Source of the DNA: a virus
Reading direction: 5' to 3' (one strand)
DNA length: 37,186 nt
IMG/VR virus record: IMGVR_UViG_3300045242_000191
Location: 1 to 37,186 of that record
The translations under genes and the position numbers were made by a program. Under the pieces are notes generated by a model, which searched no databases, was not told the DNA's origin, and saw only the letters and a program-made list of their open reading frames with translations. Positions 6,887 through 26,521 of the stretch are shown here, piece after piece. The number at the start of each line of letters is the position of its first letter. The stretch's first letter is position 1.

Positions 6887-7687
6887 ATGGTTGCGAACAG
6901 AGCCACCGCGGTGGCGCAAGGGGCCGGTCAGCAAGACACGGTGACGTGGTTGGCTGACCGCATCTCGAAGCTGGAGTCACAGCTGGCCGAGGTGCGGCGC
7001 ATCTCGCCGAGTTCGCTGAACGTGAAAGCGCCCGGCAGCGCCAACGTCGATATGCAGGCCTACGCCGACACCGTGCTGAAGTGGGCCGACGGGTCTCCGT
7101 TCGTGTGGATCCGCATCAACGAAAAAGGGCAGCGCTGTTTCCAGACCTATCCGGTCTCGTATGTCGACGCGCCGACCAACACGATCGTGGCCACTGCAGC
7201 GTGGGGCATGTTCAACCCGGCCGACTCGGGGCCCGATTGGATCAGCTCGGACGCGCTGACCGGGTGGGGGCTGGCCCGCCCGTTCCTCTCGGTACCGCTG
7301 TACGCCCAGTTCGCGCCGGTGCTGCCGGGCACCGCGAGCAACGGCGCATACCTCGCCTACCCCTCCATCAACACGGCGGCGTCGGGCATGGCGCAAGGAG
7401 TCACGCTCTGGTACGGCGAGATCCCCGAGGTGAGCCACCCGAAGCTGCGTCTGGACTTCCTCGGCGGCCAGGCGTCGGGCGCCGTGACGCCAACGTATTC
7501 GTTGTGGGTGGCCAACACGCAGCTGGACAGCTGGACCAGCACCGGCAATTTCGGATGGGACACCCGTACCGTCGACCTGACCCCGTGGAAGCGGTTCAGC
7601 CTGGTGACCGTGGAGATCAGGGTCAACTGGACAGGAAGTGGACAGATCGCGGCCAAGGTGGGCTGCTGCTTCCTGCGGGGCACCTGA
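6887..7687 (+). CDS. Tail fibre / minor tail protein, function unknown
   Basis: A 266-aa product. Residues 15-40 form a short predicted coiled coil (WLADRISKLESQLAEVRRI), a common oligomerisation and attachment helix at the N-terminus of tail-tip proteins; the rest is Trp/Tyr/Thr-rich and probably beta. It is the last gene of the tail operon, 9 nt after the previous stop with GGTG before ATG 6887, and is followed by a strong terminator. I cannot name a family. Confidence 0.6.
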   Translation: MVANRATAVAQGAGQQDTVTWLADRISKLESQLAEVRRISPSSLNVKAPGSANVDMQAYADTVLKWADGSPFVWIRINEKGQRCFQTYPVSYVDAPTNTIVATAAWGMFNPADSGPDWISSDALTGWGLARPFLSVPLYAQFAPVLPGTASNGAYLAYPSINTAASGMAQGVTLWYGEIPEVSHPKLRLDFLGGQASGAVTPTYSLWVANTQLDSWTSTGNFGWDTRTVDLTPWKRFSLVTVEIRVNWTGSGQIAAKVGCCFLRGT

Positions 7688-7694
7688 CATGGGA

Positions 7695-7722
7695 CAGCCC
7701 CGGCGCGTGACTGCCGGGGCTG
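7695..7722. terminator. Bidirectional terminator between tail operon and leftward membrane cassette
   Basis: A perfect 10-bp stem (7695-7704 with 7713-7722) and 8-nt loop sit between the convergent stops at 7687 and 7736. No U-tract, as is usual for actinobacterial hairpin terminators. Confidence 0.8.
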
Positions 7723-7735
7723 CCGAGGGACGATA

Positions 7736-8179
7736 TCAGCGCTGAGGGTCAGTCGCCGGATTCGGGCCGACGGGCTGCCCGTTCTCGGGGTCGATGCCGT
7801 TCTCGGGGCCGAGTGGGGCCGGGGTCTGGTTGGCGTTCGGGTTTGGCGGCGGCAGCCGGACCCCGTTCGCGTCGGTGCTCGGGCTCGGCTGCGTGCTGGG
7901 CACGGGCGTCTCCTCAGTTGTGGTGACGGGCTCGGCGACCAGCGCGCGCGGCGCGGCGGCCGGGGCTGAGGTGGCCGCTGCCGGCGTCGTGGCGGCTGCG
8001 GGTGTGGCGGTCGGGGCCAGTGTCTGCACGACGGCGGCGGGCGCGTCGGCCGGCACGGCGGGGCTGTTCTGGCCCCCGGCCGCGAGGTGGGCGACGCCGA
8101 GCGCGGTGGCTGCCACCAGCCCGACGCCAGCGAGCAGGGTGACGGCGCAGCTGCGGCCGGCGGGGTGGCGCTCGATCAT
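7736..8179 (-). CDS. Secreted or membrane-anchored Pro/Ala/Thr-rich protein
   Basis: A 147-aa product. Residues 10-32 are a hydrophobic signal-anchor (TLLAGVGLVAATALGVAHLA). The rest is low-complexity Ala/Pro/Thr then Pro/Asn (LPPPNPNANQ), typical of extended wall-spanning stalks. The start is at 8179, not the longer frame, because a GGAGAG site lies 8 nt before this ATG and the longer frame would run through the 85-aa gene. Last gene of the cassette. Role unknown; surface exclusion or envelope interaction is only a guess from topology. Confidence 0.7.
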   Translation of the reverse strand: MIERHPAGRSCAVTLLAGVGLVAATALGVAHLAAGGQNSPAVPADAPAAVVQTLAPTATPAAATTPAAATSAPAAAPRALVAEPVTTTEETPVPSTQPSPSTDANGVRLPPPNPNANQTPAPLGPENGIDPENGQPVGPNPATDPQR

Positions 8180-8192
8180 TTCGGCTCTCCAG

Positions 8193-8450
8193 TCAGTGAA
8201 CGGCAGTGCAGGGCGGAAGCGGCGCGTCGCCCGCGGACCATCCGGGAGGGAACGCGGCGCCGAAGGCGTAGTCCCAGCAGTCGCTGCGTGTGGTGGTCGG
8301 AGCGGGCGTGGTCCCCGATCGGGCCGCGCCGCTGATGGCGCTGACCAGCAGAACAACACCGACGACGGCCACGAGCGCAACCACAACGATCGCGCCCACC
8401 AGCTGCGACGAGACATAGAGCCGAGCGGCGCGGTCGGTGTCCGAACTCAT
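8193..8450 (-). CDS. Small membrane protein
   Basis: An 85-aa product with one strong membrane segment at about residues 16-40 (VGAIVVVALVAVVGVVLLV) and a C-terminal tail with two Cys and several Trp/Pro (DCWDYAFGAAFPPGW). The ATG at 8450 overlaps the stop of the 30-aa gene upstream (ATGA), with GGAG in the repeated 42-bp block as its ribosome-binding site. Function not recognised. Confidence 0.7.
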   Translation of the reverse strand: MSSDTDRAARLYVSSQLVGAIVVVALVAVVGVVLLVSAISGAARSGTTPAPTTTRSDCWDYAFGAAFPPGWSAGDAPLPPCTAVH

Positions 8451-8539
8451 GGCGTGTCTCCGATCGTGTGACTGTAGGACGTCGACGGCAGCAGGACGGC
8501 CAGCGCGGTGGCCAGCACCGCGAAACGCTTCTCGGTCAT
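8447..8539 (-). CDS. 30-aa membrane microprotein with duplicated C-terminal tail
   Basis: A short frame with ATG at 8539, one base after the stop of the 81-aa gene, and TGA overlapping the next ATG. The peptide starts MTEKRFAVLATALAVLL and ends in LPSTSYSHTIGDTP, which is also the C-terminus of the 70-aa protein at 8783-8995. It is either a real single-pass microprotein or the product of a duplication whose selected part is the ribosome-binding site. No strong site of its own is seen; translation would be coupled to the gene before. Confidence 0.5.
   Translation of the reverse strand: MTEKRFAVLATALAVLLPSTSYSHTIGDTP
8451..8492 (-). repeat. 42-bp direct repeat, copy A (ribosome-binding site plus peptide tail)
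   Basis: Matches 8787-8828 at 41 of 42 positions. On the minus strand it encodes PSTSYSHTIGDTP and contains the GGAG used by the next gene. Confidence 0.9.
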
Positions 8540-8540
8540 G

Positions 8541-8786
8541 TCAGATACCAGCCTGGCGCAGCGCTTCGCGGATCTTGGACACAGCGACGGACTTACGGTC
8601 GTCACCGTCTTCGTTGGTCAGCACCTCGTCCAGCGCTTCGTTGACCGCCTCGGCGTTGAACAGGTCATACTGTTCGGACGCAGCGTCGATGATCTCGTCC
8701 AGTTGGTCGCCGAGCTGGACGTGACGTCCCATGTCGTCTACGGCCCACTGGCGCGCGTCACGCTCCAGCTGCTCCAGAATGTTCAC
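8541..8786 (-). CDS. Hypothetical acidic helical protein
   Basis: An 81-aa product, acidic and helical (QLGDQLDEIIDAASEQYDL; NEALDEVLTNEDGDD), ending KIREALRQAGI. GTG start at 8786, chosen because it overlaps the stop of the 70-aa gene and has GGAGAC in the 42-bp repeat just upstream. The only clearly soluble product in the middle of a membrane-protein cassette, so it may act with them at the membrane. No family recognised. Confidence 0.65.
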   Translation of the reverse strand: MNILEQLERDARQWAVDDMGRHVQLGDQLDEIIDAASEQYDLFNAEAVNEALDEVLTNEDGDDRKSVAVSKIREALRQAGI

Positions 8787-8995
8787 GGCGTGTCTCCGAT
8801 CGTGTGGCTGTAGGACGTCGACGGCAGCGGTTCGGTTGCCGGCGCGCGGTACTGGAAGATACCCACGACGATCCCGACTAGGGCGAAGATCAGGACCAGC
8901 GTGAACGCCACGAACGAGAACCAGGGGTGTGGGCTGGTCCGCCACGGAACCGCCCGGTGCTGCCGGACGGTTCCGCGACGCGCTGGGTGGGTCAC
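8783..8995 (-). CDS. Single-pass membrane protein
   Basis: A 70-aa product: basic N-terminus (THPARRGTVRQHRAVPWR), one membrane helix at about residues 26-48 (FSFVAFTLVLIFALVGIVVG), and a short tail ending in LPSTSYSHTIGDTP. GTG start at 8995 overlaps the TGA of the 59-aa gene. The positive-inside rule puts the N-terminus in the cytoplasm and the duplicated tail outside. Function unknown. Confidence 0.65.
   Translation of the reverse strand: MTHPARRGTVRQHRAVPWRTSPHPWFSFVAFTLVLIFALVGIVVGIFQYRAPATEPLPSTSYSHTIGDTP
8787..8828 (-). repeat. 42-bp direct repeat, copy B
   Basis: The partner of 8451-8492, one mismatch in 42. It covers the end of the 70-aa gene and the ribosome-binding site of the 81-aa gene. 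Confidence 0.9.
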
Positions 8996-9171
8996 CGATA
9001 GTTCTTCTCGGCCACGAAGTCTCGGACGGCTTCCTGGCGACCGACCTTGCCGGCGGCCGGGTGGCCGATCTGCTTCTCGACCAGCTTCGGCAACGCCACC
9101 GTGCGCCCGGTGTGGGTGTTGACGACCTGCTCGCCGTCGGCGCTGACCGCGTACCGCTTCGACTTCGACAT
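8992..9171 (-). CDS. Hypothetical basic 59-aa protein
   Basis: First gene of the leftward membrane cassette. MSKSKRYAVSADGEQ at the start, then TGRTVALPKLVEKQIGHPAAGK, ending FVAEKNYR. Lysine/arginine-rich and small, so nucleic-acid binding is possible but unproven. ATG 9171 has GGAGAG 6 nt upstream; TGA overlaps the next GTG. A candidate promoter lies at 9217-9222. Confidence 0.65.
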   Translation of the reverse strand: MSKSKRYAVSADGEQVVNTHTGRTVALPKLVEKQIGHPAAGKVGRQEAVRDFVAEKNYR

Positions 9172-9216
9172 CGTGCGCTCTCCAGAGGCTCAGTGTGTGC
9201 TGCTGTTGTGGGAACC

Positions 9217-9222
9217 ACGCTA
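9217..9222 (-). promoter_or_regulatory. Candidate -10 box TAGCGT of the leftward membrane cassette
   Basis: TAGCGT fits the actinobacterial TANNNT -10 and shares the GCTA context with other candidate promoters in this genome (GCTACGAT, GCTACGCT). Transcription would start near 9210, giving a ~40-nt leader with the GGAGAG site of the 59-aa gene. The 17-bp element and its palindrome lie just upstream. Confidence 0.45.
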
Positions 9223-9224
9223 GC

Positions 9225-9256
9225 CCTCTAAGTTGCAAAACGTCGCAACTTAGAGG
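9225..9256. promoter_or_regulatory. Element S1: tandem TTGC element inside a 12-bp inverted repeat
   Basis: Minus strand 9248-9232 reads TTGCGACGTTTTGCAAC, the full 17-bp tandem element. It is embedded in a perfect inverted repeat (9225-9236 with 9245-9256) with an 8-nt centre. It lies between the end of the glycosylation operon (stop 9274) and the promoter of the membrane cassette, so it could be an operator and also a terminator for the operon upstream. Confidence 0.6.
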
Positions 9257-9273
9257 CCATCGTTACCGAGCTG

Positions 9274-9390
9274 TTACAACTTCTGCCGGTTCAACGTCGC
9301 ACCGCACTTGCCGCACGTGGTGACCAGGTAGTCGCCTTCGATGCCGCTGGACGCCTGGCCGAGGTGGTCGCAGTCCCTGGGGTCACCCAT
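9274..9390 (-). CDS. 38-aa zinc-ribbon-like protein
   Basis: MGDPRDCDHLG, then TTCGKCGATLNRQKL: a Cys/His pair (C7, H9) and a CxxC (C26, C29) suit one zinc ion. ATG 9390 overlaps the stop of the 30-aa gene. Last gene of the leftward glycosylation operon. Such tiny zinc proteins are frequent in actinophages and mostly uncharacterised. Confidence 0.55.
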   Translation of the reverse strand: MGDPRDCDHLGQASSGIEGDYLVTTCGKCGATLNRQKL

Positions 9391-9475
9391 TCCCCGTGCC
9401 CCCACACTTGGAACAGATCTGGCCGTTGACGACGCCGATGCCGCCGCAGCGCTCGCACAGTCCCTTGTTTCCCAT
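9383..9475 (-). CDS. 30-aa zinc-knuckle protein (two CxxCGG)
   Basis: The whole product is two zinc knuckles: CERCGGIG at residues 7-14 and CSKCGGTG at 21-28, the DnaJ-type CxxCxGxG spacing. AGGGAG precedes ATG 9475 by 8 nt. It lies 12 nt downstream of the GT-A gene in the same operon. A protein of this size would bind one zinc ion and probably partner a protein or RNA. Confidence 0.6.
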   Translation of the reverse strand: MGNKGLCERCGGIGVVNGQICSKCGGTGNG

Positions 9476-9487
9476 GAACGATCTCCC

Positions 9488-10096
9488 TTACCAGCGATTC
9501 GGCTGGCCCGAAGTGTTGGAACCATGATGGTGCCAGATGAACGTCTGTTCGTGCAGGTGGTGGAAGCGAGCGCCGGCGTTCAGCAGCTTCAGAAAGAAGC
9601 CGTGATCGTCGTTCACCGCGCCCGTCTCATCGGCGATGAACTCGAAACCGCCCACACGCTTGGCCCACTCGGTACGCACTAAGCACGTGGTCTGGATATG
9701 TGCCTTACGCCGCAGGTAATCCGGATCGAACAACGGCCCACCGCCCCAATCGAACTGTCGCGGGATCTCCACCCCGTTCGGTCCGATCACCTTGGGCAGC
9801 GAGTAGCAGACGTCCGCTTTCTCGCACAGCGCGTTCAGTAGCAGCTTCTCCAGGTGCTCGGGCATCATCTCGTCGTCGTCGTCCAGAAACGCCACCCAAT
9901 CAGTGGTGACGCGTTCCAAGCCCTCGTTACGGGTATGCGCCGCACCTCTCCTCTCGGTGTCCATGGACGTGATCACGCCGACGTCCGCGAACTCCCGCAG
10001 GGTCTGCCGATCCACGCTGTCCGTGGCGCGGCCGAGCCATGCTTGTCTGATCGGTATCGTGGGGATAACCACCGTGACGCCGTCAACACTGGTCAT
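9488..10096 (-). CDS. GT-A fold glycosyltransferase (family 2-like)
   Basis: A 202-aa product starting MTSVDGVTVVIPTIPIR, the beta-strand nucleotide-binding start of GT2 enzymes. The metal-binding acidic motif WVAFLDDDDEM is at about 68-77, and a C-terminal GAVNDDHGFFLKLLNAG and WHHHG follow. It would transfer a sugar from a nucleotide donor in the cytoplasm. ATG 10096 overlaps the methyltransferase stop and has GGAG upstream; the longer frame was rejected on that basis. It forms an operon with a methyltransferase and a GT-B enzyme, so glycan decoration of virion or host surface is the likely job. Shorter than full GT2 enzymes but with the key motifs. Confidence 0.85.
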   Translation of the reverse strand: MTSVDGVTVVIPTIPIRQAWLGRATDSVDRQTLREFADVGVITSMDTERRGAAHTRNEGLERVTTDWVAFLDDDDEMMPEHLEKLLLNALCEKADVCYSLPKVIGPNGVEIPRQFDWGGGPLFDPDYLRRKAHIQTTCLVRTEWAKRVGGFEFIADETGAVNDDHGFFLKLLNAGARFHHLHEQTFIWHHHGSNTSGQPNRW

Positions 10097-10632
10097 TTTC
10101 TCCACAAGTACGCTCCGATCGTGTATTCGCTGTCCTTGCGCACGACAGCCGAGTCGGGGTAAGGGACGACAGAATCGTGCACGAACTCCAGGAACGACTT
10201 GTGCGTCCACTCGCTGATGTGTGCCTCATGCTCGTTTCCCTCGCTCGGCTCCTGCGGACAGTAGCCCAGGGGGACCGAGGCGATGATGCCCTTGGTGGCC
10301 CAGATCTGCGCTCGGCGCAGCGCCGACGCGGCGTCATTCAGGGTCATGTGCTCCAGCACGTCGCCGAGAACGACGACGTCGAAGGTGGCCGGCCCGATGT
10401 TGGCGTTCAGCACGTTCTCCACGATCACCTGCTCGTAATGCAACTTCAGATCGTAGCGCTCCACGTACGGCTCGTGAATCTCCAGCGCCACCCACGTGGT
10501 CCACGGCAGGATCGGACGGAACAGCCGACTGTAGACGCCGCTGCCCGCACCGATGTCGAGAATGGTGTCTGGGCGCATTTCGCGCAGCCATTCCCTGATC
10601 TCGGCTTTGCAGAGGTTGGATGAGAAAGGCAT
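10093..10632 (-). CDS. SAM-dependent methyltransferase (class I)
   Basis: A 179-aa product. Motif I ILDIGAGSGVYSRLF at 24-38, acidic motif II ALEIHEPYV at 49-57, and FDVVVLGDVLEHM at 84-96 are typical Rossmann-fold methyltransferase signatures. AGGAGAGG precedes ATG 10632; the stop overlaps the next ATG. Lying between two glycosyltransferases, it most simply methylates the sugar or its acceptor. No target-recognition domain is visible, so DNA methylation is unlikely. Confidence 0.85.
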   Translation of the reverse strand: MPFSSNLCKAEIREWLREMRPDTILDIGAGSGVYSRLFRPILPWTTWVALEIHEPYVERYDLKLHYEQVIVENVLNANIGPATFDVVVLGDVLEHMTLNDAASALRRAQIWATKGIIASVPLGYCPQEPSEGNEHEAHISEWTHKSFLEFVHDSVVPYPDSAVVRKDSEYTIGAYLWRK

Positions 10633-10832
10633 CAGGGGTGCCTCTCCTGAAGCCGCTGCCACTCTTCGCAGGACAAGCCCCACATCTGGAATTCGGTCTC
10701 GATAAAGTCGACCACGAAACTGCGCAGATATGAGAACGCCTGATCGCGAGACTCGAACTGTATGGGCAGCCCCTCCCAACTGGCCAGCTCCAGTCGTTCC
10801 GTTTTGAAATGCTTTATCAATACCAGTACCAT
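10632..10832 (-). CDS. Hypothetical protein of the glycosylation operon
   Basis: A 66-aa product, MVLVLIKHFKTERLELASWEG, then FESRDQAFSYLRSFVVDFIETEFQMWGLS, compatible with a small alpha/beta domain. ATG 10832 was chosen over an upstream GTG because GGAGAG is 8 nt from this ATG and too close to the GTG. Its stop overlaps the methyltransferase start, so expression is coupled. No family recognised. Confidence 0.6.
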   Translation of the reverse strand: MVLVLIKHFKTERLELASWEGLPIQFESRDQAFSYLRSFVVDFIETEFQMWGLSCEEWQRLQERHP

Positions 10833-10850
10833 GATGCCCACTCTCCAGGG

Positions 10851-10979
10851 TCAGCTAGGACACGGACAGAGAACCCAGCAGCCGCCACATTTAGCGCACT
10901 TGTGGCTGTCCATCGGCTCTCCGCAATTGGAACAGGTTGGCGGTTCGTTTACCTTGCGAGGTGCGGGAATGTGCGCCAT
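10851..10979 (-). CDS. 42-aa cysteine-rich zinc-ribbon protein
   Basis: MAHIPAPRKVNEPPT, then CSNCGEPMDSHKCAKCGG and CWVLCPCPS: eight cysteines in 42 residues, with two clear CxxC knuckles. The ATG overlaps the TGA of the GT-B gene (TGATG), so it is coupled to it. Probably a structural zinc protein; role unknown. Confidence 0.6.
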   Translation of the reverse strand: MAHIPAPRKVNEPPTCSNCGEPMDSHKCAKCGGCWVLCPCPS

Positions 10980-11971
10980 CACTTCCACACGCTTTCGTAG
11001 ATCGCGGCCCAGCGGTGGGCGTTAGCTTCGATGGTGCGCTCGCGGGCCCAGTTACGCCACGCTTTTCGTTCGTCGTGCAGTTCCTGGGGAGCACTGACCA
11101 GCGCACCGACGTGATGCTGCCAGTGCTCGGTTTTACTGGTGTGTCGACCGGTCACTTTGGCGTACGGGCCCCAATTCGTCATCACTGGCACCGCGCCGAT
11201 GGCCGCTGACTCCAGTATCCGGATGTCTGATTTGGACCGGTTGAACTCGGTGGGCGCGAGCGGGGCCAGCGCGATGTTGAAGTCCAGCGCATTGTAGTAA
11301 TCGGCGATGTCGCGCTGGAATGGGGTGTGCCGAAGGGCGCGCAACGTGCCCGCTACCTCGGCGCTGTAGTCGGCTCCCACGATGTGAAAATCGATCTTGT
11401 TCGAGTAGTCCAGCGCCGCCCGGATGCCGTCGGCGTTGACCATCCAGTCTCCGCGGTGCGTGGGCGATCCCGCCCACCCCACGACGACCTTGTGCCCGCG
11501 CAACGGCGGCAGCACCCGGTCCACCAGCGCCGCCGGGACGAAGTTGCCGACCACGCGGATGGGCGCCGAGGTGTGCTGGCTGACCTTCTCGGCCAGGTAG
11601 TTGGTGCTGACGGTGACCACGTCGGCCATGGCCAGGCATGTCTCCAGCCGCATCAGCAGTTCGGGCTGCATCATGCGGTGCGCCGGGTTGTCCGGCGGGA
11701 TCGTCCAGAAGTCGTCATCCAGGTCCACCGCGAGCAGGCATGCCGACTTGCGGGACCAGTGGCGCATGGTGCGCATGGTCACTGCGTTCATCGGCCGCTG
11801 GACCACCACGACGTCGGGAGGGCTGCCGACGCGGTCGGAGGGGTACCCGGTGCCGACCGCGGCGTCCCATCCGTGCAGGCTGGCCAGTGTGGACAGGGGG
11901 AGGGTGAGGCGGTACCACTCGCTGCCGCCGGGGCCGGCCGACCAGCCGAAAATCGAGGGTTTGCGACTCAT
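10979..11971 (-). CDS. GT-B fold glycosyltransferase (GT4-like)
   Basis: A 330-aa product, first gene of the leftward glycosylation operon. It begins FGWSAGPGGSEWYRLTLP, has the helical linker seen between GT-B lobes (ADVVTVSTNYLAEKV), then KVVVGWAGSPTHRGD and a C-terminal donor-binding segment SKSDIRILESAAIGAVPVMTNWGPY, the E-x7-E-like region of GT4 enzymes. The start is ATG 11971: a TACGAT -10 box lies 6 nt upstream and no ribosome-binding site is seen, so the mRNA is likely leaderless. Actinophage glycosyltransferases have been linked to capsid or tail glycosylation; that role here is inference. Confidence 0.85.
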   Translation of the reverse strand: MSRKPSIFGWSAGPGGSEWYRLTLPLSTLASLHGWDAAVGTGYPSDRVGSPPDVVVVQRPMNAVTMRTMRHWSRKSACLLAVDLDDDFWTIPPDNPAHRMMQPELLMRLETCLAMADVVTVSTNYLAEKVSQHTSAPIRVVGNFVPAALVDRVLPPLRGHKVVVGWAGSPTHRGDWMVNADGIRAALDYSNKIDFHIVGADYSAEVAGTLRALRHTPFQRDIADYYNALDFNIALAPLAPTEFNRSKSDIRILESAAIGAVPVMTNWGPYAKVTGRHTSKTEHWQHHVGALVSAPQELHDERKAWRNWARERTIEANAHRWAAIYESVWK

Positions 11972-12004
11972 TGCAACATCGTAGCGCACCGCAAAACGTC
12001 GCAC
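11961..12004 (-). promoter_or_regulatory. Leaderless promoter of the glycosylation operon with elements S2a and S2b
   Basis: Minus-strand TACGAT at 11983-11978 lies 6 nt before ATG 11971. Two copies of the 17-bp element flank it: TTGCGACTCATTGCAAC on the plus strand at 11961-11977, over the start codon, and a weaker one at 12004-11988 (GTGCGAC-GTT-TTGCGGT on the minus strand). Binding at either would block RNA polymerase. Confidence 0.55.
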
Positions 12005-15602: not shown

Positions 15603-15806
15603 TCACACCGCGGGCAGCGGCTCGTGCTTGATCTCGTGCGTCATGCTGCCGTGGGTCTCCGAGAAACACGGCGCTCGCAGGCAGAACGGCGACCTGGTCT
15701 GCTCGTTCAGCCACGCGGTCCGGACCGCCCCCGGCGGCGCCGGCCATCTCATCTCGGTGATGACTGCCTCGCGAATGTCGTCGTAACAGTGCCGGCACCT
15801 GGCCAT
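15603..15806 (-). CDS. Small Cys-containing protein
   Basis: A 67-aa product, MARCRHCYDDIREAVITEMRW, with CxxC at 4-7 and Cys at 42 and 47 (FCLRAPC), compatible with one zinc site. ATG 15806 overlaps the WhiB stop (TGATG) with GGAAAG upstream. Last gene of the leftward operon. Function not recognised. Confidence 0.55.
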   Translation of the reverse strand: MARCRHCYDDIREAVITEMRWPAPPGAVRTAWLNEQTRSPFCLRAPCFSETHGSMTHEIKHEPLPAV

Positions 15807-16186
15807 CAGTGCTTTCCGTCCCGGTACCCGATGTCGTAACCGCGGTGGTGCTTGCGGCCGGGCGCGTGCCGGGCGTCCAGGATCTGGCGCAGTTCCTTCT
15901 CCGACAGGCCGCCCCACGTGCCGTCCTTGATCTTGTGGTCCAGAGCGTACTGAAGGCACTGCATCCGCACCGGACACAGCGTGCATAGTCGCTTGGCCTT
16001 TTTGGTGTCCGCCGAGTGGGGCGGTTGGAACCACCACTCAGGGTCGTGGACCAGCTCCAGGCACTCCCCGTCGTTGGTCCAGTCCGGCGGCTGCCAGGCG
16101 ATCTCCAGGGCAGGGGACTTCTCGGGCCGGTCGAGGTGGCGCCCGGTGCCGGTTCTGCGAGTGCGGCTGACATCGTGTGTTCTCAT
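15806..16186 (-). CDS. WhiB-family transcriptional regulator
   Basis: A 126-aa product with the four WhiB iron-sulfur cysteines (C42; C68, C71, C77 in LCTLCPVRMQCLQYAL) and the G(V/I/T)WGG turn as DGTWGGLSEKELR at 88-100. A basic C-terminal tail follows (RHAPGRKHHRG). WhiB proteins bind a [4Fe-4S] cluster and usually the host sigma-A region 4, and are found only in actinobacteria and their phages. ATG 16186 has GGAGAG 6 nt upstream. It may redirect host transcription or sense redox state. Confidence 0.92.
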   Translation of the reverse strand: MRTHDVSRTRRTGTGRHLDRPEKSPALEIAWQPPDWTNDGECLELVHDPEWWFQPPHSADTKKAKRLCTLCPVRMQCLQYALDHKIKDGTWGGLSEKELRQILDARHAPGRKHHRGYDIGYRDGKH

Positions 16187-16209
16187 GGTCCACTCTCCAG
16201 GTGGTCGAA

Positions 16210-16755
16210 CTACTTCGGGTAAGTGGCCGACAGTGGGTCGGGCCATTTCAGGTCCATCCGCGCGGCGAACAGCGCATGCCGGCCGGCGTCGCGCGCGTGG
16301 CCCCCGCCGGCGGGAATGGCAGCCAGCAGCCCGGCGCGCTCCAGCCGCCGGTTCGTGGCCCACTTCTTGACCTGTGACGCCGAGCGGACGGACAACCGAG
16401 CGCCGCCGTTCGACGCCACCACGGATTCCAACCAGCCGATGATGCGCCGGGCCAGCGCGCCGCCCTTGGGCGTCTTGCTACGCGAGGCGCGGCCCCGCAC
16501 CACGAACTGCTCGGTGGCCACCAACAGCGCGCCGGGCGTGATTCCGGTCACGACGGTGCCGCCGTTGAACAGCGCCGGCCCAGTGTCGGCTTCCAGCGTG
16601 CCGGTGGCCAGCATGCCATTGACCAGGTTGCCGAGGTATTCGGTGAACTGCGCACCCGGCACCTCGGCGCTGTGCAACAGCACGTACCGGCCGTTGACCA
16701 GCTCCAGCACGGCAATGCCCGTGGTGCCGCCGGGGTCCACTCCGATGACGATCAC
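16210..16755 (-). CDS. RuvC-like Holliday junction resolvase / RNase H-fold nuclease
   Basis: A 181-aa product. IGVDPGGTTGIAVLE at 4-18 carries the first catalytic Asp (D7), Glu82 is in VATEQFVV, and GGHARDAGRHALF at 151-163 gives the C-terminal Asp/His. This D-E-(H/D) pattern is typical of phage RuvC-like enzymes that clear branched DNA before packaging. GTG 16755 overlaps the TGA of the 31-aa gene; GAGAGG is 10 nt upstream. It lies in an operon with a helicase and ssDNA-binding protein, which fits recombination or replication. Confidence 0.8.
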   Translation of the reverse strand: MIVIGVDPGGTTGIAVLELVNGRYVLLHSAEVPGAQFTEYLGNLVNGMLATGTLEADTGPALFNGGTVVTGITPGALLVATEQFVVRGRASRSKTPKGGALARRIIGWLESVVASNGGARLSVRSASQVKKWATNRRLERAGLLAAIPAGGGHARDAGRHALFAARMDLKWPDPLSATYPK

Positions 16756-21532: not shown

Positions 21533-21570
21533 GAGCGCCACCCTACGCGTCGATTGCGACGTTTTGCAAC
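21533..21570 (-). promoter_or_regulatory. Leaderless promoter of the leftward DNA-metabolism operon with element S3
   Basis: Minus-strand TTGCAA (21569-21564), an 18-nt spacer, TAGGGT (21545-21540), 7 nt, then ATG 21532. The full element TTGCGACGTTTTGCAAC is at 21554-21570 on the plus strand and covers the -35. It also lies upstream of the rightward replicase gene, so one site could control both. Confidence 0.6.
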
Positions 21571-21749
21571 TGGTGTGGCAGACTGGCTCCGCCGCCCCTC
21601 ACGTGGAGTAGTGTCCGTTGGGCCCACAACGAAAGGCCCCGCCGGCTGACAACCAGCGGGGCACTGAATCGCCTGGAGAGCGAGTCCCGAGCCCGAAGCC
21701 GGCGGGTGAACCGGCGCAACCACAAACTCAGAGACCGGAGAAACATAGC
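21571..21749 (+). promoter_or_regulatory. Structured leader of the replicase gene
   Basis: About 180 nt with no gene before ATG 21750. It has a possible -10 (TAGTGT, 21608-21613), a 7-bp GC hairpin (21636-21642 with 21656-21662), and a second small hairpin (GCCGG/CCGGC near 21692-21709). GTG 21611 could start a 12-codon frame ending at 21649. Together these fit an attenuator-type leader. I could not match it to a known riboswitch. Confidence 0.4.
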
Positions 21750-24700
21750 ATGGCCGAACAGCCTGAGCAGGACGCCCGTCAGGCTCTTGACATCGCCCGC
21801 CGGCTAGCCGCCGCGGGCGTGCCGATCTTCTCGGCCCCGCCGGACCCATCGGTCAAGGTCGGATTCAAGCTGCCCTACCAGTGGCACCTGACCACGCCGG
21901 CCATGGCCGACGCCGAGATCGCGCTGTGGCAGCCCGGATGGGCGCTGTGCGCCGTCATGGGCCACGGTCTGGACCTGGTTGACGTCGACACCCGGTCCGG
22001 CGGCAGCTGGCCCGAGTTCCTGCCCGTCACGGCGGCGCTCGGCATCGCCGCCACGCCGAGCGGTGGGCTGCACGGTTTCGTGCCGAGCCTCGGCCTGCGC
22101 TCGCGTGACGCCATCCTGCCCGGCGTCGACTACAAGGGCGGCACGGGCAGCGACGGCCACGGCTTCGCGTTCATCGCGCCGACCGTGAAGCCGAGCAAGG
22201 TGACCGGGGAGCTGGCCGGGTACGCGTGGATCCAACCGCCAGCCATGCCTGTCGACCACGCGGACGCCGTGGCGCGCTGGCGGTCGCTTGAGCCCCTGCG
22301 GCTGCACATCGCGGCCGTACAGGCGTCCAGCCCCGCGGCCCGGCCGGCGCCGGCCGGCGACGTCTTCGCCGAGTTCTACGGCCAGCGCGAGGCGCAGAGC
22401 AGGCAGACCGCGGCCAGAGCCTGTGCCCGGGCGGTGGCCGAGGCGGCTGAGCCGGCGCAGCCCGGCGGGGGCTACCGCCTGCGGCTGATGAAAGCGGCCA
22501 TGACGCTGGGCGGCTACGTGGGCGCCGGCGCGCTGTCGGCGGACGTGGCCGAGCGGGAGCTGGCCGGCGCCGTCCGGCGGGCGTGGGGCACTGAGCCGGA
22601 CGCCGAAGACTTGCAGTGGATCGCGGACGGCCTACGCGACGGCGCCGCCCGGCCGTTCCACGTCTACGACGAACGCGCCGCCGATCCGCTGACCGGTCTG
22701 CCGCCAGCCGCGGCGCAGAGCCTGGAGCATGTCCGCCGGCACGGCGCGCTGCCCGAGGTGTTCGACCCGACCGATGCGGGGCTCAACGATCACCTGCTCG
22801 CGGAATCGGTGCTCGGCTTCCTGCACCCCAACATCCGGATGGACCCTGAGTCGGGCGCGTGGCTCACGCGCGGGCCCGAGCGCTGGCACGTGACCAAACG
22901 GGACGCGTCCGGTTGGATGATCACCGAGGTGGCCCCGCGTATGCCCGTCGGGGTGACGCCGGTGCCCAAGGACCCGGGTGAGCGGCTGCCCGAGCACTGG
23001 CAGGCCGCGCGCCGGGCGAAGTTCCACAGCTCCGGCTCGGCCAACGGCTCCGGCGGTGTCGAAAAGAAGATCAAGGCGCTGCTGGCCGTGGAAGGTCACC
23101 CCAACCACGTCAAGCTGTCCGAGCTGGACGCCGACCCGAAGGCGATGTGGGCCGGCGGTCAGCCGTGGGACTTGCGCACCGGCCAGCTGGCCGACATCGA
23201 CCCGCTGACGCCGCACACCCACACGGCCCGGTTCGCGCCGGTGGAAGGCCCCACGCCGTTGTGGGACGCGTTCACCGCGGCCGTGTGGCCGGACGCCGAG
23301 ATCAGGGAGTGGGCGTTGCGCGTGCTCGCGGTGTCGCTGACCGGGCACAGTCCGCGGATCATGCCCGTGCTCTGGGGTGACACCGGCGGCGGCAAGTCGC
23401 AGGTGATCACACTGCTGATCCACCTGCTCGGCACCTACGGGGAACAGGTGGACCAACGGCTGGTCGGCCGGAACGAGCCGCCCGGGCACGTGGTGGTGAA
23501 GCTGCGGGGGCTGCGGCTGGCCTACCTGGACGAGGCCGCTCCCGTCGACGTGGAGCGGGTGGAGCGGGTCAAGATGCTGACCGGCGGCGGCGGCGCGATG
23601 ACCGCGGACGCCAAATACCTGGACGCGGTGACGTGGGACCCCACCCACACCCTGATTCTGACGCAGAACCGGGCGCCCGAGCTGACCGACGACGCGCTGC
23701 GCAGCCGGGCCCGGGTCATCCCCTGCGACGGGAACCCGGAGCTGGTGGACCGGGCACGGGCGCCGCTCGGCGACATCAGCCGGGACCAGTTCACCAGCGA
23801 GTGGACGGCCGAGGCGCCCGGCGTGCTCGCGGCCATGATCCAACGTGCCGGGATCTGGCTGGCCGACCGCGCGACGCTGTCCCACAACCACACGCCGGCC
23901 AGCGTCACCGAGCTGGTGGAGACCACCGTCCGGGAACAGGACCCGATCGGCATGTGGATGGACGCCCGCACCGTGCCGGCCGATCCGGGCACGCTGTCCC
24001 GCGAGCTGCACGAGGACTTCGCGCTGTGGTTCAAGGCCAGCCCGGTGTTCGGCCGGCGCTCGGTCCCCGGCCCCGATCAGTTCGGCAAGCGCCTCACCAA
24101 GCTGGGCGTGGGGGCTACGCACAGTAGGGAAGGCAAGCGCCGGCACCTTCAGCTCACCAGCCCGTCCAATGGTTGGGTCATCCCACCTATGACGCCGCCG
24201 GCAGCCCCTGTGACGGGTGAGCGTGACGGGTGTGACGGGTCTGTGACGGGTCCGACGAAGCCACCCGTCACACAGAACCCGCAGGTGGGTACCGAAGTTG
24301 ATCTTCCCGTGACGGGTGTGACGGCTGATTCCCTAGTAAGTTCAAAAGTATGTTCTGTAACGGTTAAGAAAGAGTGTCGGGAAGAGTATGGCGAACACCC
24401 GTCACCCGTCACACCCGTCACCGAACCGGCTCCCACCTCGGCAAACCCGGGTGTGACGGGTAATAGCGACCCGTCACGGCCCGAGACGGCGCTGGCGGCG
24501 CCCGAGGGCAGCTCGGTAGCCCCCAGGCGCTCACGCTCCGCGACATCCGCTGCCGTGGCGAAGCGTGAGGCCAAGGAGCTGGCCAAGCTGGAGCTGATCG
24601 CCGAGCTGGCTGGCGAGATCCTGGAGCTGCCGGCGGTCGTCCGGCGCACGGCGCGCACGCCTCGGCACATCGACCACGTGCACGCGGGCCCGCTGCTGGC

Positions 24701-26471
24701 CGACGCCATCGTGAAGGCGAACGGCTGCCTGACGGTGGACGTGGAGAACACCAGCTACCCGATCGGGCACCCGGACCACGCCCTGCGGACGGTGCAGCTC
24801 GGCACCCGCGTGCTGGCCGTCGACTTCGACGCCACCTGCTCGGAATGCCGGGAGGTCGTCCGGCGCGCGCTGGCCAAGGCCACCACGCTGCACGCGCACA
24901 ACGCCGCCGCCGACCTGTCCGAGCTGGCCCATGCCCGACTCGGCGATCTGGCCGACATGTGGAGCCGGATGGACGACACCGTGATCCGGGCCAAGCTGGC
25001 CGATCCCACCAGCACCGGTGGCGCCCCGGGCCTCAAGGACGCCTCGGCCGCCGTGCTCGGCGAGGCGGCCATGAGCCCGGCAGCCGACGCCGCTCGTGAG
25101 GCCCTGTTCAAGACGGCCGGGTGGACGACCAACGTGGACCCCACCGACCCGGTGAGCCGGTCCGGCTGGCACCAGGTCGATCCCCGGTGCGCCACGATGA
25201 TCAGCTACGCCTGTGCCGACGTGCTGGACGGCGCGCTGCTGGCGCTGGACCTCCCGGCGCCCGATCCGGCCGTGCACGCCAGGGAGCGCGCCGTCCAGGT
25301 GATCGTGTCCCGGCCGGCGGCGCTCGGCTTCCCGCTCGACCGGGCGGCGGTGCTGGAGCAGAACGAGCTGCACGAGAACGCCGTGGAGACCCTGCACCGG
25401 CGCATCCAGTCCGAACTCGGCATCGACAACCCGGGCAGCCCCAAGCAGGTGGGTGAGCGGCTGCTCGCTCTGGGGGCTCAGTTGCCCGCCACGGCCACCG
25501 GCAAGCCCTCGGTGGCCAAGGACGTGCTTCAGACCATGGCAGGCGCGTGGGAGCTGCCTGACGGCTCGGAAGACGTCACCGCGCTGGAGCCGCACAACTT
25601 CGCCCAGCACGCGGCTCGGTTGGTGCTCGATTGGCGCAAGCACGACACCGTGCTGAAGCTGATCCTGCGTCCGTGGAAGATCGCCACCACCCACGGCGAC
25701 GGACGCATCCGGCCCACGGTCTACACGCTGGGAGCTGACACCGGGCGCATGAGCTGCGTCCGGCCCAACATGCAGCAGGTCAGCAAAAAGGGCGGCGTCC
25801 GCGAGTGCATCGCCGCCGACGACGGCATGTCGATCATCTCGGCGGACTTCGCCGGTGTTGAGCTGCGGGTGGCCGCGGCGCTGTCCGGGGACCGGATGCT
25901 GCGCCACGCCATCGACAACGGGCTCGACATCCACCGCATGATCGCCAGTCAGGTGTTCGGGGAGGACTACGCCGACGCCAACCGGACGCTGGCCAAACGG
26001 ATCGTGTTCGGCCGGGTCTATGGCGGCGGCATCCCCACCCTGGCCAAGCAGGCCGGTGTGCCGCAGTCCATCGCCGCCGCAGCCGTGGAGGTCATGGACT
26101 CGATCACGCCGGATCTCGCGGTGTGGTCCGAGCAGATCCGCAGTGGCATCCGGGCCGGCCACCGGCAGTTTCAGACCTACGCCGGCCGGGTCATCCACCT
26201 GGACCCCAAGCTTCCGCACAAGGGCCCGAACTACCTGATCCAGGGCACTGCCCGCGAGCTGCTGGTGGACGCGCTGCTGCGCTGGGAGCGCGGTCCGTGG
26301 GGCGGCGGCCTGGTGATGCCGGTGCACGACGAGGTGGTGGCCATGGTCCCCACGGCACAGGCCGACGACGCGCTGGCCCACCTGCTGGAGTGCATGACCC
26401 TGGAGCTCAACGGCATCCCCATCGCCGCCGAGGCGGGCGGCCCGCCGGCCCGCACCTGGCACAGCGGCTGA
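21750..26471 (+). CDS. Fused replicase: primase-polymerase, SF3 helicase, 3'-5' exonuclease and family A DNA polymerase
   Basis: A 1573-aa protein, the largest here. Residues ~1-190: bifunctional primase-polymerase, with DxD at 78/80 and SGGLHGF around His108. Residues ~480-700: SF3/D5-type helicase, Walker A GDTGGGKS (543-550), Walker B AYLDEA (D594, E595), sensor LTQN (N640). Residues ~820-910: low-complexity linker carrying the iterons. Residues ~985-1165: 3'-5' exonuclease with DVE (D997, E999), HNAAAD (D1055) and YACAD (Y1153, D1157), all intact. Residues ~1240-1573: polymerase with motif A DFAGVELRV (D1366), motif B R1412-K1416-F1420-YG, and motif C HDE (D1527). GGAG 9 nt before ATG 21750; the TTG 21618 extension is low complexity and rejected. 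Confidence 0.92.
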   Translation: MAEQPEQDARQALDIARRLAAAGVPIFSAPPDPSVKVGFKLPYQWHLTTPAMADAEIALWQPGWALCAVMGHGLDLVDVDTRSGGSWPEFLPVTAALGIAATPSGGLHGFVPSLGLRSRDAILPGVDYKGGTGSDGHGFAFIAPTVKPSKVTGELAGYAWIQPPAMPVDHADAVARWRSLEPLRLHIAAVQASSPAARPAPAGDVFAEFYGQREAQSRQTAARACARAVAEAAEPAQPGGGYRLRLMKAAMTLGGYVGAGALSADVAERELAGAVRRAWGTEPDAEDLQWIADGLRDGAARPFHVYDERAADPLTGLPPAAAQSLEHVRRHGALPEVFDPTDAGLNDHLLAESVLGFLHPNIRMDPESGAWLTRGPERWHVTKRDASGWMITEVAPRMPVGVTPVPKDPGERLPEHWQAARRAKFHSSGSANGSGGVEKKIKALLAVEGHPNHVKLSELDADPKAMWAGGQPWDLRTGQLADIDPLTPHTHTARFAPVEGPTPLWDAFTAAVWPDAEIREWALRVLAVSLTGHSPRIMPVLWGDTGGGKSQVITLLIHLLGTYGEQVDQRLVGRNEPPGHVVVKLRGLRLAYLDEAAPVDVERVERVKMLTGGGGAMTADAKYLDAVTWDPTHTLILTQNRAPELTDDALRSRARVIPCDGNPELVDRARAPLGDISRDQFTSEWTAEAPGVLAAMIQRAGIWLADRATLSHNHTPASVTELVETTVREQDPIGMWMDARTVPADPGTLSRELHEDFALWFKASPVFGRRSVPGPDQFGKRLTKLGVGATHSREGKRRHLQLTSPSNGWVIPPMTPPAAPVTGERDGCDGSVTGPTKPPVTQNPQVGTEVDLPVTGVTADSLVSSKVCSVTVKKECREEYGEHPSPVTPVTEPAPTSANPGVTGNSDPSRPETALAAPEGSSVAPRRSRSATSAAVAKREAKELAKLELIAELAGEILELPAVVRRTARTPRHIDHVHAGPLLADAIVKANGCLTVDVENTSYPIGHPDHALRTVQLGTRVLAVDFDATCSECREVVRRALAKATTLHAHNAAADLSELAHARLGDLADMWSRMDDTVIRAKLADPTSTGGAPGLKDASAAVLGEAAMSPAADAAREALFKTAGWTTNVDPTDPVSRSGWHQVDPRCATMISYACADVLDGALLALDLPAPDPAVHARERAVQVIVSRPAALGFPLDRAAVLEQNELHENAVETLHRRIQSELGIDNPGSPKQVGERLLALGAQLPATATGKPSVAKDVLQTMAGAWELPDGSEDVTALEPHNFAQHAARLVLDWRKHDTVLKLILRPWKIATTHGDGRIRPTVYTLGADTGRMSCVRPNMQQVSKKGGVRECIAADDGMSIISADFAGVELRVAAALSGDRMLRHAIDNGLDIHRMIASQVFGEDYADANRTLAKRIVFGRVYGGGIPTLAKQAGVPQSIAAAAVEVMDSITPDLAVWSEQIRSGIRAGHRQFQTYAGRVIHLDPKLPHKGPNYLIQGTARELLVDALLRWERGPWGGGLVMPVHDEVVAMVPTAQADDALAHLLECMTLELNGIPIAAEAGGPPARTWHSG
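24209..24477. repeat. Iteron array, candidate replication origin inside the replicase gene
   Basis: Exact 9-mer GTGACGGGT forward at 24210, 24223, 24232, 24243, 24309 and 24453; reverse (ACCCGTCAC) at 24263, 24397, 24404, 24413 and 24469. Near matches at 24318 and 24357. The copies flank an A+T-rich island (24327-24390, roughly 60% A+T by my count in a strongly GC-rich genome). They fall in several reading frames and both orientations, so peptide repetition does not explain them. The layout parallels lambda ori in gene O and the P4 iterons bound by the primase-helicase alpha. Confidence 0.75.
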
Positions 26472-26494: not shown

Positions 26495-26521
26495 TTGCGA
26501 CGTTTTGCTACGATGCATCGT
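26495..26521 (+). promoter_or_regulatory. Leaderless promoter of the HTH gene with element S4
   Basis: TTGCGACGTTTTGCTAC at 26495-26511. Its second heptamer overlaps an extended -10, TGC-TACGAT (hexamer 26509-26514), which stands exactly 7 nt before ATG 26522. This arrangement predicts autoregulation if the HTH protein binds the element. Confidence 0.6.

What the first reader, a model, noticed from the sequence alone, without database searches (positions are those of the whole stretch)
7736..9171. Cassette of small envelope proteins with a duplicated 42-bp segment
Six overlapping genes (59, 70, 81, 30, 85, 147 aa), four with membrane segments, form one unit behind a regulated promoter. The 42-bp repeat (41/42) gives two of the proteins the same tail LPSTSYSHTIGDTP and supplies the next gene's ribosome-binding site. 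A likely role is modification of the host envelope or exclusion of other phages; the cassette is separate from the lysis genes.
Basis: partly seen in the sequence, partly recalled or inferred. Interest (0 to 1): 0.6.

Follow-up and report, generated by a model that had tools for sequence, protein, structure and literature searches.

The report
Phage small-gene cassette, recombination scar
A cluster of small, mostly membrane-bound proteins in an uncultured actinobacterial-type phage is real, but its striking 42-base repeat looks like the scar of a gene-swapping accident, a kind of event already described in phages, rather than a working part.

Summary
Six minus-strand ORFs (59, 70, 81, 30, 85, 147 codons) lie at 7736-9171. 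A 42-base direct repeat (41/42) gives the 70- and 30-residue products the same tail and carries the next gene's ribosome-binding site. Two corrections: 3 of 5 gene junctions overlap, and 3 of 6 proteins (not four) have a full membrane segment.

Two related IMG/VR contigs (37.8 and 38.0 kb) carry the core cassette, 59/58 - 62/65 - 50/51 - 150/138 residues. They lack the 81- and 85-residue genes and the second repeat copy. The window's 30-residue ORF is the first 17 codons of their whole 50/51-residue gene, fused to a second copy of the upstream gene's tail. So the repeat is best read as a scar of gene gain, close to the published Island3/Brujita case, and the shared tail as incidental.

The cassette is a discrete unit: a 13-base motif shared with three other transcription units stands before it, a hairpin after it. 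It is apart from the endolysin and holin genes. Function is untested. I favour early cell-surface remodelling or superinfection exclusion (about 0.35), led by the 147-residue protein; a lysis accessory is the main rival.

The parts
9225..9256 (-). perfect inverted repeat (12-nt arms, 8-nt spacer) holding the 13-base motif TGCGACGTTTTGC (9235-9247); probable operator or activator site
   Evidence: in G002 the outer arms differ but still pair; in G001 only the motif is kept
9217..9222 (-). candidate -10 box TAGCGT, 12 nt after the motif (TACGCT in G002 and TAGTGT in G001 at the same spacing)
   Evidence: read; the TAnnnT consensus is recalled; inference
8992..9171 (-). 59-aa soluble protein, core gene; relatives in G001, G002 and G003
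   Evidence: 62-78% identity; dN<dS in all 6 pairs
8783..8995 (-). 70-aa single-pass membrane protein, core gene; basic N-terminus, outer C-terminal tail APATEPLPSTSYSHTIGDTP
8787..8828 (-). 42-base repeat, copy 1 (resident copy): end of the 70-aa gene plus ribosome-binding site of the 81-aa gene
   Evidence: same place as the single copy in G002, with which it shares the base at which the copies differ
8541..8786 (-). 81-aa soluble protein, gained gene; one relative, in G003 (49% identity)
   Evidence: absent from G001 and G002 at this place
8447..8539 (-). 30-aa ORF: 17-codon stump of the 50/51-aa secreted or membrane protein gene of the relatives, fused to the copied tail
8451..8492 (-). 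42-base repeat, copy 2 (derived copy): tail of the 30-aa ORF plus ribosome-binding site of the 85-aa gene
8193..8450 (-). 85-aa single-pass membrane protein, gained gene or replacement allele; no relative found
7736..8179 (-). 147-aa core protein: N-terminal membrane anchor and a 113-aa Pro/Ala/Thr/Ser-rich outer part
7693..7724 (-). 12-bp hairpin, probable bidirectional terminator between the convergent tail and cassette genes
   Evidence: -27.7 kcal/mol, z -3.62; hairpins at the same place in G001 and G002

Best explanation
A self-contained leftward transcription unit of an uncultured, probably lytic actinobacterial-type phage. SHOWN by comparison: the core is 58/59 - 62/65/70 - 50/51 - 138/147/150 residues. 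In the window's lineage an 81-aa gene was gained between core genes 2 and 3. Core gene 3 was broken after codon 17 and joined to a second copy of the end of core gene 2, which brings the ribosome-binding site of a new 85-aa gene. INFERRED: the simplest route is one unequal recombination between a phage with the order 70-tail-81-50-147 and one with 70-tail-85-147, at a 5-base overlap (GCTGC). The repeat and the shared peptide tail are then a scar, kept because the junction leaves translation of the next gene intact. INFERRED, weaker: three proteins span the membrane once, with the N-terminus inside, and show their C-terminal parts outside; a motif shared with the unit holding the primase-polymerase gene suggests early expression. 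The most likely role is to change or shield the cell surface during infection so that further phages are kept out. My odds: architecture 0.9, scar 0.85, surface/exclusion role 0.35.
For: Core genes keep their order in 2 of 2 relatives that carry them (G001 = L006/L002, G002 = L008). Both have the 50/51-aa gene whole and lack the 81- and 85-aa genes. Junctions: the window reads MTEKRFAVLATALAVLL like G002's VTEKRFAVVATALAVLL and then changes to the tail; homology resumes at CTGGAGAG before the 147-aa gene. Only copy 1 lies where G002 has its single copy. Deleting between the two copies gives 70-tail-85, not the relatives' order, so the relatives are not deletion products of the window's form. 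A 5-nt overlap is found in 0.94% of simulated random breakpoints at 70% GC. The 81-aa gene has its only relative in G003, which shares 385 bases with the window by blastn. Unit limits: 13-base motif in 4 places in the window, 4 in G002 and 2 in G001, 0 in the backward control; hairpins in 3 of 3 genomes. dN<dS for 59 (6 of 6 pairs), 70 (3 of 3), 50 (1 of 1), 81 (1 of 1), 147 (3 of 3, but 0.51 against 0.55 in one). The 147-aa outer part is 59% P+A+T+S in all 3 relatives; the best 100-aa stretch of 23 other window proteins reaches 49% at most.
Against: Only two relatives carry the core, both metagenomic contigs; no donor with the order 70-85-147 was found. Similarity of the 85-aa protein's end to the 50-aa protein's end is not significant (297 and 170 of 2000 shuffles reach it), so replacement of an allele is not shown. 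A 5-base overlap is weak evidence of mechanism. Nothing shows expression, timing, location or function. Four records lack Pfam integrase and resolvase domains, so lysogen-type exclusion has no support, though other lysogeny systems were not searched for.
Confidence: 0.65

Rival explanations
1. The repeat is functional: a duplicated translation-coupling leader, or a tail peptide that both proteins need (for example to pair or to be placed in the envelope).
For: 41/42 identity, same frame, intact ribosome-binding site in both copies; LPSTSY is kept in core protein 2 of all 3 genomes.
Against: One copy or none in relatives; the second copy follows a truncated hydrophobic stretch; G001 keeps LPSTSY but has another ending (TQTR). 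The same frame has a 1 in 3 chance. The tail is not a conservation peak: longest three-way identical run in the 70-aa gene 11 nt, reached by 1884 of 5000 codon shuffles.
Confidence: 0.1
2. The cassette is a lysis accessory: single-pass, N-in/C-out proteins that disturb the actinobacterial envelope at the end of infection, like LysZ of Corynebacterium phages, or holin-like regulators.
For: Predicted topology and outer domain of the 147-aa protein fit what PMC13056207 says of LysZ (177 aa, one membrane segment, N-in-C-out; passages).
Against: Opposite strand and over 3.7 kb from the endolysin and 5.9 kb from a holin-family gene; its promoter motif is shared with the unit holding the primase-polymerase gene. 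LysZ homology was not tested.
Confidence: 0.25
3. The cassette works with the neighbouring leftward operon (two glycosyltransferases and a methyltransferase, 9488-11977) to modify host or virion glycans.
For: Same strand, adjacent, same 13-base motif before both units in 3 of 3 genomes.
Against: Separate promoter-like elements; no enzyme domain in any of the six cassette proteins.
Confidence: 0.2
4. The window's order is ancestral and the relatives lost genes.
For: Both relatives are shorter in this stretch.
Against: Deletion between the repeats gives 70-85-147, and a stump cannot give back a whole 50-aa gene, present in 2 of 2 relatives.
Confidence: 0.05

Closest known systems
Island3 genes 67/68 against Brujita (Cluster I mycobacteriophages; PMC3029335, section 13 read whole)
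   Same: Two neighbouring small genes share a C-terminal tail (18 residues there, 14 here) through a direct repeat at their 3' ends (60 bp there, 42 here); a close relative has one copy and lacks the extra gene.
   Different: There the single-copy form is what recombination between the copies would give. Here it is not: the second copy truncates a gene, carries the next start's ribosome-binding site, and a further gene (81 aa) was gained.
Corndog gene 14 flanked by a 17-bp direct repeat (Cluster O; PMC4351075, passages)
   Same: Extra small gene bounded by a direct repeat that is single in relatives.
   Different: Shorter repeat, no truncated gene.
Start Associated Sequences of Cluster K mycobacteriophages (PMC3203893, passages)
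   Same: A repeated sequence just before gene starts.
   Different: SAS is 13 bp and recurs before many genes in each genome; here there are two copies, of unrelated sequence.
LysZ of Corynebacterium phages (only as described in PMC13056207, passages)
   Same: One membrane segment, N-in-C-out, outer domain.
   Different: Not next to lysis genes; homology not tested.
Butters gp30/gp31 exclusion system (PMC7542560, abstract and headings)
   Same: Small phage-encoded pair, at least one a membrane protein, proposed to keep other phages out.
   Different: Prophage-expressed; these records show no integrase or resolvase domain; homology to Butters proteins was not tested one by one (tblastn against phage records found no match for 59, 70 and 85 aa).

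Membership tests
Phage mosaicism: gene gain by recombination at gene boundaries | genes present in one genome and absent from close relatives, with sharp breaks at or near gene ends | tested here: met
   81- and 85-aa genes absent from G001 and G002 at this place; breaks at a start codon, inside the 50-aa gene and before the 147-aa gene
Phage mosaicism: gene gain by recombination at gene boundaries | gained gene present in another genome background | tested here: inconclusive
   81-aa gene: one relative in G003; 85-aa gene: none
Island3-type repeat-flanked insertion (strict sense) | tail-sharing genes joined by a direct repeat that is single-copy in a relative | tested here: met
Island3-type repeat-flanked insertion (strict sense) | recombination between the copies gives the relative's structure | tested here: not met
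   the product is 70-tail-85, the relatives have 70-tail-50; so not filed as a strict member
Start Associated Sequences (Cluster K) | many copies before gene starts throughout the genome | tested here: not met
   2 copies in the window at up to 3 mismatches
Superinfection exclusion protein | membrane or envelope location | tested here: inconclusive
   hydropathy only, 3 of 6 proteins
Superinfection exclusion protein | blocks adsorption or DNA entry of later phages | not testable with these tools
   needs infection assays
Superinfection exclusion protein | similarity to a catalogued anti-phage protein | tested here: not met
   PADLOC: no match for 5 of 6 proteins; 147 aa to PD-T4-6 at E 0.022, 12 bits, taken as low-complexity chance
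LysZ-like envelope lysis protein | encoded in the lysis cassette | tested here: not met
LysZ-like envelope lysis protein | sequence similarity to LysZ | not tested
   no LysZ sequence was fetched

The most novel reading that the evidence does not exclude
A lytic actinobacterial phage makes, early in infection, a membrane-tethered mucin-like decoy: the 147-aa protein's Pro/Ala/Thr/Ser-rich outer part is O-mannosylated by the host and mimics or hides a mannosylated phage receptor, closing the cell to competitors. The small genes beside it are a swappable slot, and the 42-base repeats keep the two-gene gain reversible, since recombination between them removes the 81- and 30-aa ORFs cleanly.
Probability: 0.1. 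Interest if true: 0.65.

Novelty: new member of a known kind. Interest (0 to 1): 0.32.

Why it matters
It shows how a run of tiny, translation-coupled phage genes changes: a copied gene end can bring its own ribosome-binding site, so a broken junction still expresses the gene behind it. Here relatives give the order of events more firmly than in the Island3 case, whose authors could not tell gain from loss. It also warns against reading a shared peptide tail as a shared function. If the surface role holds, the cassette is a small, easily cloned test bed for exclusion by lytic phages of actinobacteria.

Tried and rejected
Searches that gave nothing. Degenerate tail pattern in IMG/VR: 0. Phage records: blastn of 7000-10000 and megablast of 1-25000 and tblastn of the 70, 85 and 59 aa proteins, G002's 138-aa relative of the 147-aa protein and G002's 51-aa protein: no match. 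The 81 aa protein gave 8 Pseudomonas phage records at E 0.7-0.9, taken as chance. The window's own 147 and 30 aa products were not searched there. 85 aa in IMG/VR: 272 stretches matched a pattern, 0 relatives. Bacterial and archaeal genomes: the 266-aa tail protein and the 59-aa family, 0 relatives. Rfam: 0. PHROGs and Pfam for the six proteins: only weak, unnamed or below-cut-off matches.

Rejected: homology of the 85-aa and 50-aa C-termini (not significant). A fold for the 59-aa protein: model at mean pLDDT 74, no match at E <= 0.001; a DUF1508 phage protein ranks tenth in the viral library at E 0.93, a lead only. PDB sequence search with the 59-aa family: best E 0.32, FtsZ, taken as chance. 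81-aa model: pLDDT 63 from two sequences, no match. Special conservation of the tail: not shown. The large tblastx coverage between window and G003 (29482 bases) is taken as chance from high GC and summed statistics; blastn gives 385 bases, and I did not print where these lie. GT relatives L004 and L005 (29% identity) were not followed.

Full report
WHAT IS THERE. The window is one virus record of 37186 bases. Its nearest annotated phage relatives by the portal protein are Streptomyces and Microbacterium phages, at 25-29% identity in the 12 rows listed of 19 records with a match, and by a minor tail protein mostly Arthrobacter phages (132 of 144 records, all under 60% identity). No DNA-level relative was found among 50,697 phage records. 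The cassette is on the minus strand between the tail genes, which end at 7687, and a leftward operon of glycosyltransferase, methyltransferase and family-2 glycosyltransferase genes. All six ORFs and the repeat are as described, with the two corrections in the observation check: 3 of 5 junctions overlap, and 3 of 6 proteins have a full membrane segment.

RELATIVES. The 266-aa tail protein found one related contig, and the 59-aa protein three: IMGVR_UViG_3300021086_000012 (G001; L002, L003, L006, L009, L012), 3300046722_000274 (G002; L008, L010, L011) and 3300047628_000026 (G003; L007, L013). Scans with the 147-aa and 70-aa alignments added no new contig. By blastn, G002 covers 30818 and G001 24668 of 37186 window bases, G003 385.

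THE CASSETTE IN RELATIVES. G001 and G002 carry: 59 and 58 aa; a membrane protein of 62 and 65 aa ending LPSTSYTQTR and LPSTSYSHTIGATP; a 50- and 51-aa protein MTERRFAVTATLLAALLLGG... and VTEKRFAVVATALAVLLLGS..., with a hydrophobic start and two cysteines near the end; and 150 and 138 aa beginning MIERHPAGRSCA. Neither has the 81- or 85-aa gene there. G001 has an extra ORF between the promoter motif and the 59-aa gene. G003 has relatives of the 59-aa (76%) and 81-aa (49%) proteins, followed by an ORF that reads like a DEAD/DEAH helicase (my reading of the sequence; no family search was run on it). The G003 59-aa gene is closer to the window's (82% of bases) than G002's is (70%), which points to exchange between phages.

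THE REPEAT. Copy 1 (8787-8828) lies where G002 has its only copy and shares with it the base at which the two window copies differ. Copy 2 (8451-8492) begins where the window's 30-aa ORF stops resembling the 50/51-aa gene. The window's junction GCCGTCCTGCTGCCGTCG shares GCTGC with both parents as represented by G002's gene and copy 1; an overlap of 5 or more occurs in 0.94% of simulated random breakpoints. Recombination between the copies would give 59-70-85-147 with every remaining frame intact (one search read the 59, 70 and 85 aa frames). It would not give the relatives' order, and a 17-codon stump cannot regenerate a whole gene, so the window's form is derived. The simplest account is unequal recombination between two related phages with different genes in the slot, after or together with gain of the 81-aa gene, whose ends fall at or next to start codons. 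The shared peptide tail then follows from the joining frame (1 chance in 3).

THE UNIT. TGCGACGTTTTGC occurs 4 times in the window: before the cassette, before the glycosyltransferase operon, 50 bases before the 1617-aa primase/helicase/DNA polymerase ORF, and before a small helix-turn-helix gene. It occurs 4 times in G002 and twice in G001 (a third there with one mismatch), and never in backward controls. G002 also has one extra site with one mismatch (18936) that has no counterpart in the window at that cut-off. At the cassette the motif sits 12 bases before TAGCGT, TACGCT or TAGTGT in the three genomes. Downstream, a 12-bp hairpin with z -3.62 (window), and hairpins at z -5.21 (G002) and -3.62 (G001), stand between the convergent genes. 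The first 29 bases of the 147-aa gene are identical in all three genomes (0 of 5000 codon shuffles reach this), a possible boundary for homologous exchange, while the rest of the gene diverges.

FUNCTION. Three proteins have one strong hydrophobic segment behind an N-terminus with basic residues, so N-in/C-out is likely (inference). The 147-aa protein's outer part has 59% P+A+T+S in all three genomes, no cysteine and at most one aromatic residue, while the proteins are 49-61% identical. In 23 other window proteins the richest 100-residue stretch reaches 49% at most. In Streptomyces coelicolor, loss of Ppm1 or Pmt gives resistance to phage phiC31, and a glycoprotein receptor is proposed (PMC5982138, passages); high proline content is noted for many M. 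tuberculosis mannosylated peptides (PMC12757957, passages). A surface shield or decoy is therefore a fair guess, and exclusion the role I favour, at about one in three. A lysis role is less likely because the endolysin and holin genes are on the other strand. Prophage-type exclusion has no support, as 0 of 4 records have a Pfam integrase or resolvase domain. The 59- and 81-aa proteins are soluble and may have nothing to do with the envelope.

COMPARISON. The closest precedent is Island3 67/68 against Brujita (PMC3029335, section 13): tail-sharing small genes joined by a direct repeat, single-copy in a relative. Ours differs in that repeat recombination does not give the relatives' form. None of the papers I saw describes this cassette; the seven searches were for comparable cases and would not have found an unnamed phage.

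Noticed in passing
window 9235-9247, 11991-12003, 21555-21567, 26496-26508: A 13-base motif TGCGACGTTTTGC stands before four transcription units, and at matching places in two related contigs; a likely phage regulon signal.
   Followed up: partly
window 21618-26471 (+): One 1617-aa open frame matches both a D5_N-type primase/helicase region and a family A DNA polymerase, an unusual fusion; G002 has an ORF of like length after the same motif.
   Followed up: no
window 8151-8179 (-), and the starts of the relatives' genes in L006 and L008: The first 29 bases of the 147-aa gene are identical in three genomes while the rest diverges; 0 of 5000 codon shuffles reach this. Possible boundary sequence for gene exchange.
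   Followed up: partly
L006 5573-5983 (G001): An extra ORF sits between the promoter motif and the 59-aa gene in G001 only, a second variable slot in the same unit.
   Followed up: no
window 9488-11977 (-): Leftward operon of two glycosyltransferases and a methyltransferase; may modify host or virion glycans.
   Followed up: no
window 9383-9475 (-), L008 5730-5900: 30-aa CxxCxGxG zinc-knuckle-like ORF with a similar sequence in G002.
   Followed up: no
window 15806-16363 (-): WhiB-family transcription factor gene, a possible partner of the 13-base motif.
   Followed up: no
L007 6001-6637 (G003): 59-aa and 81-aa relatives stand ahead of a helicase-like ORF in another phage, with a further 68-aa ORF between them.
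   Followed up: partly
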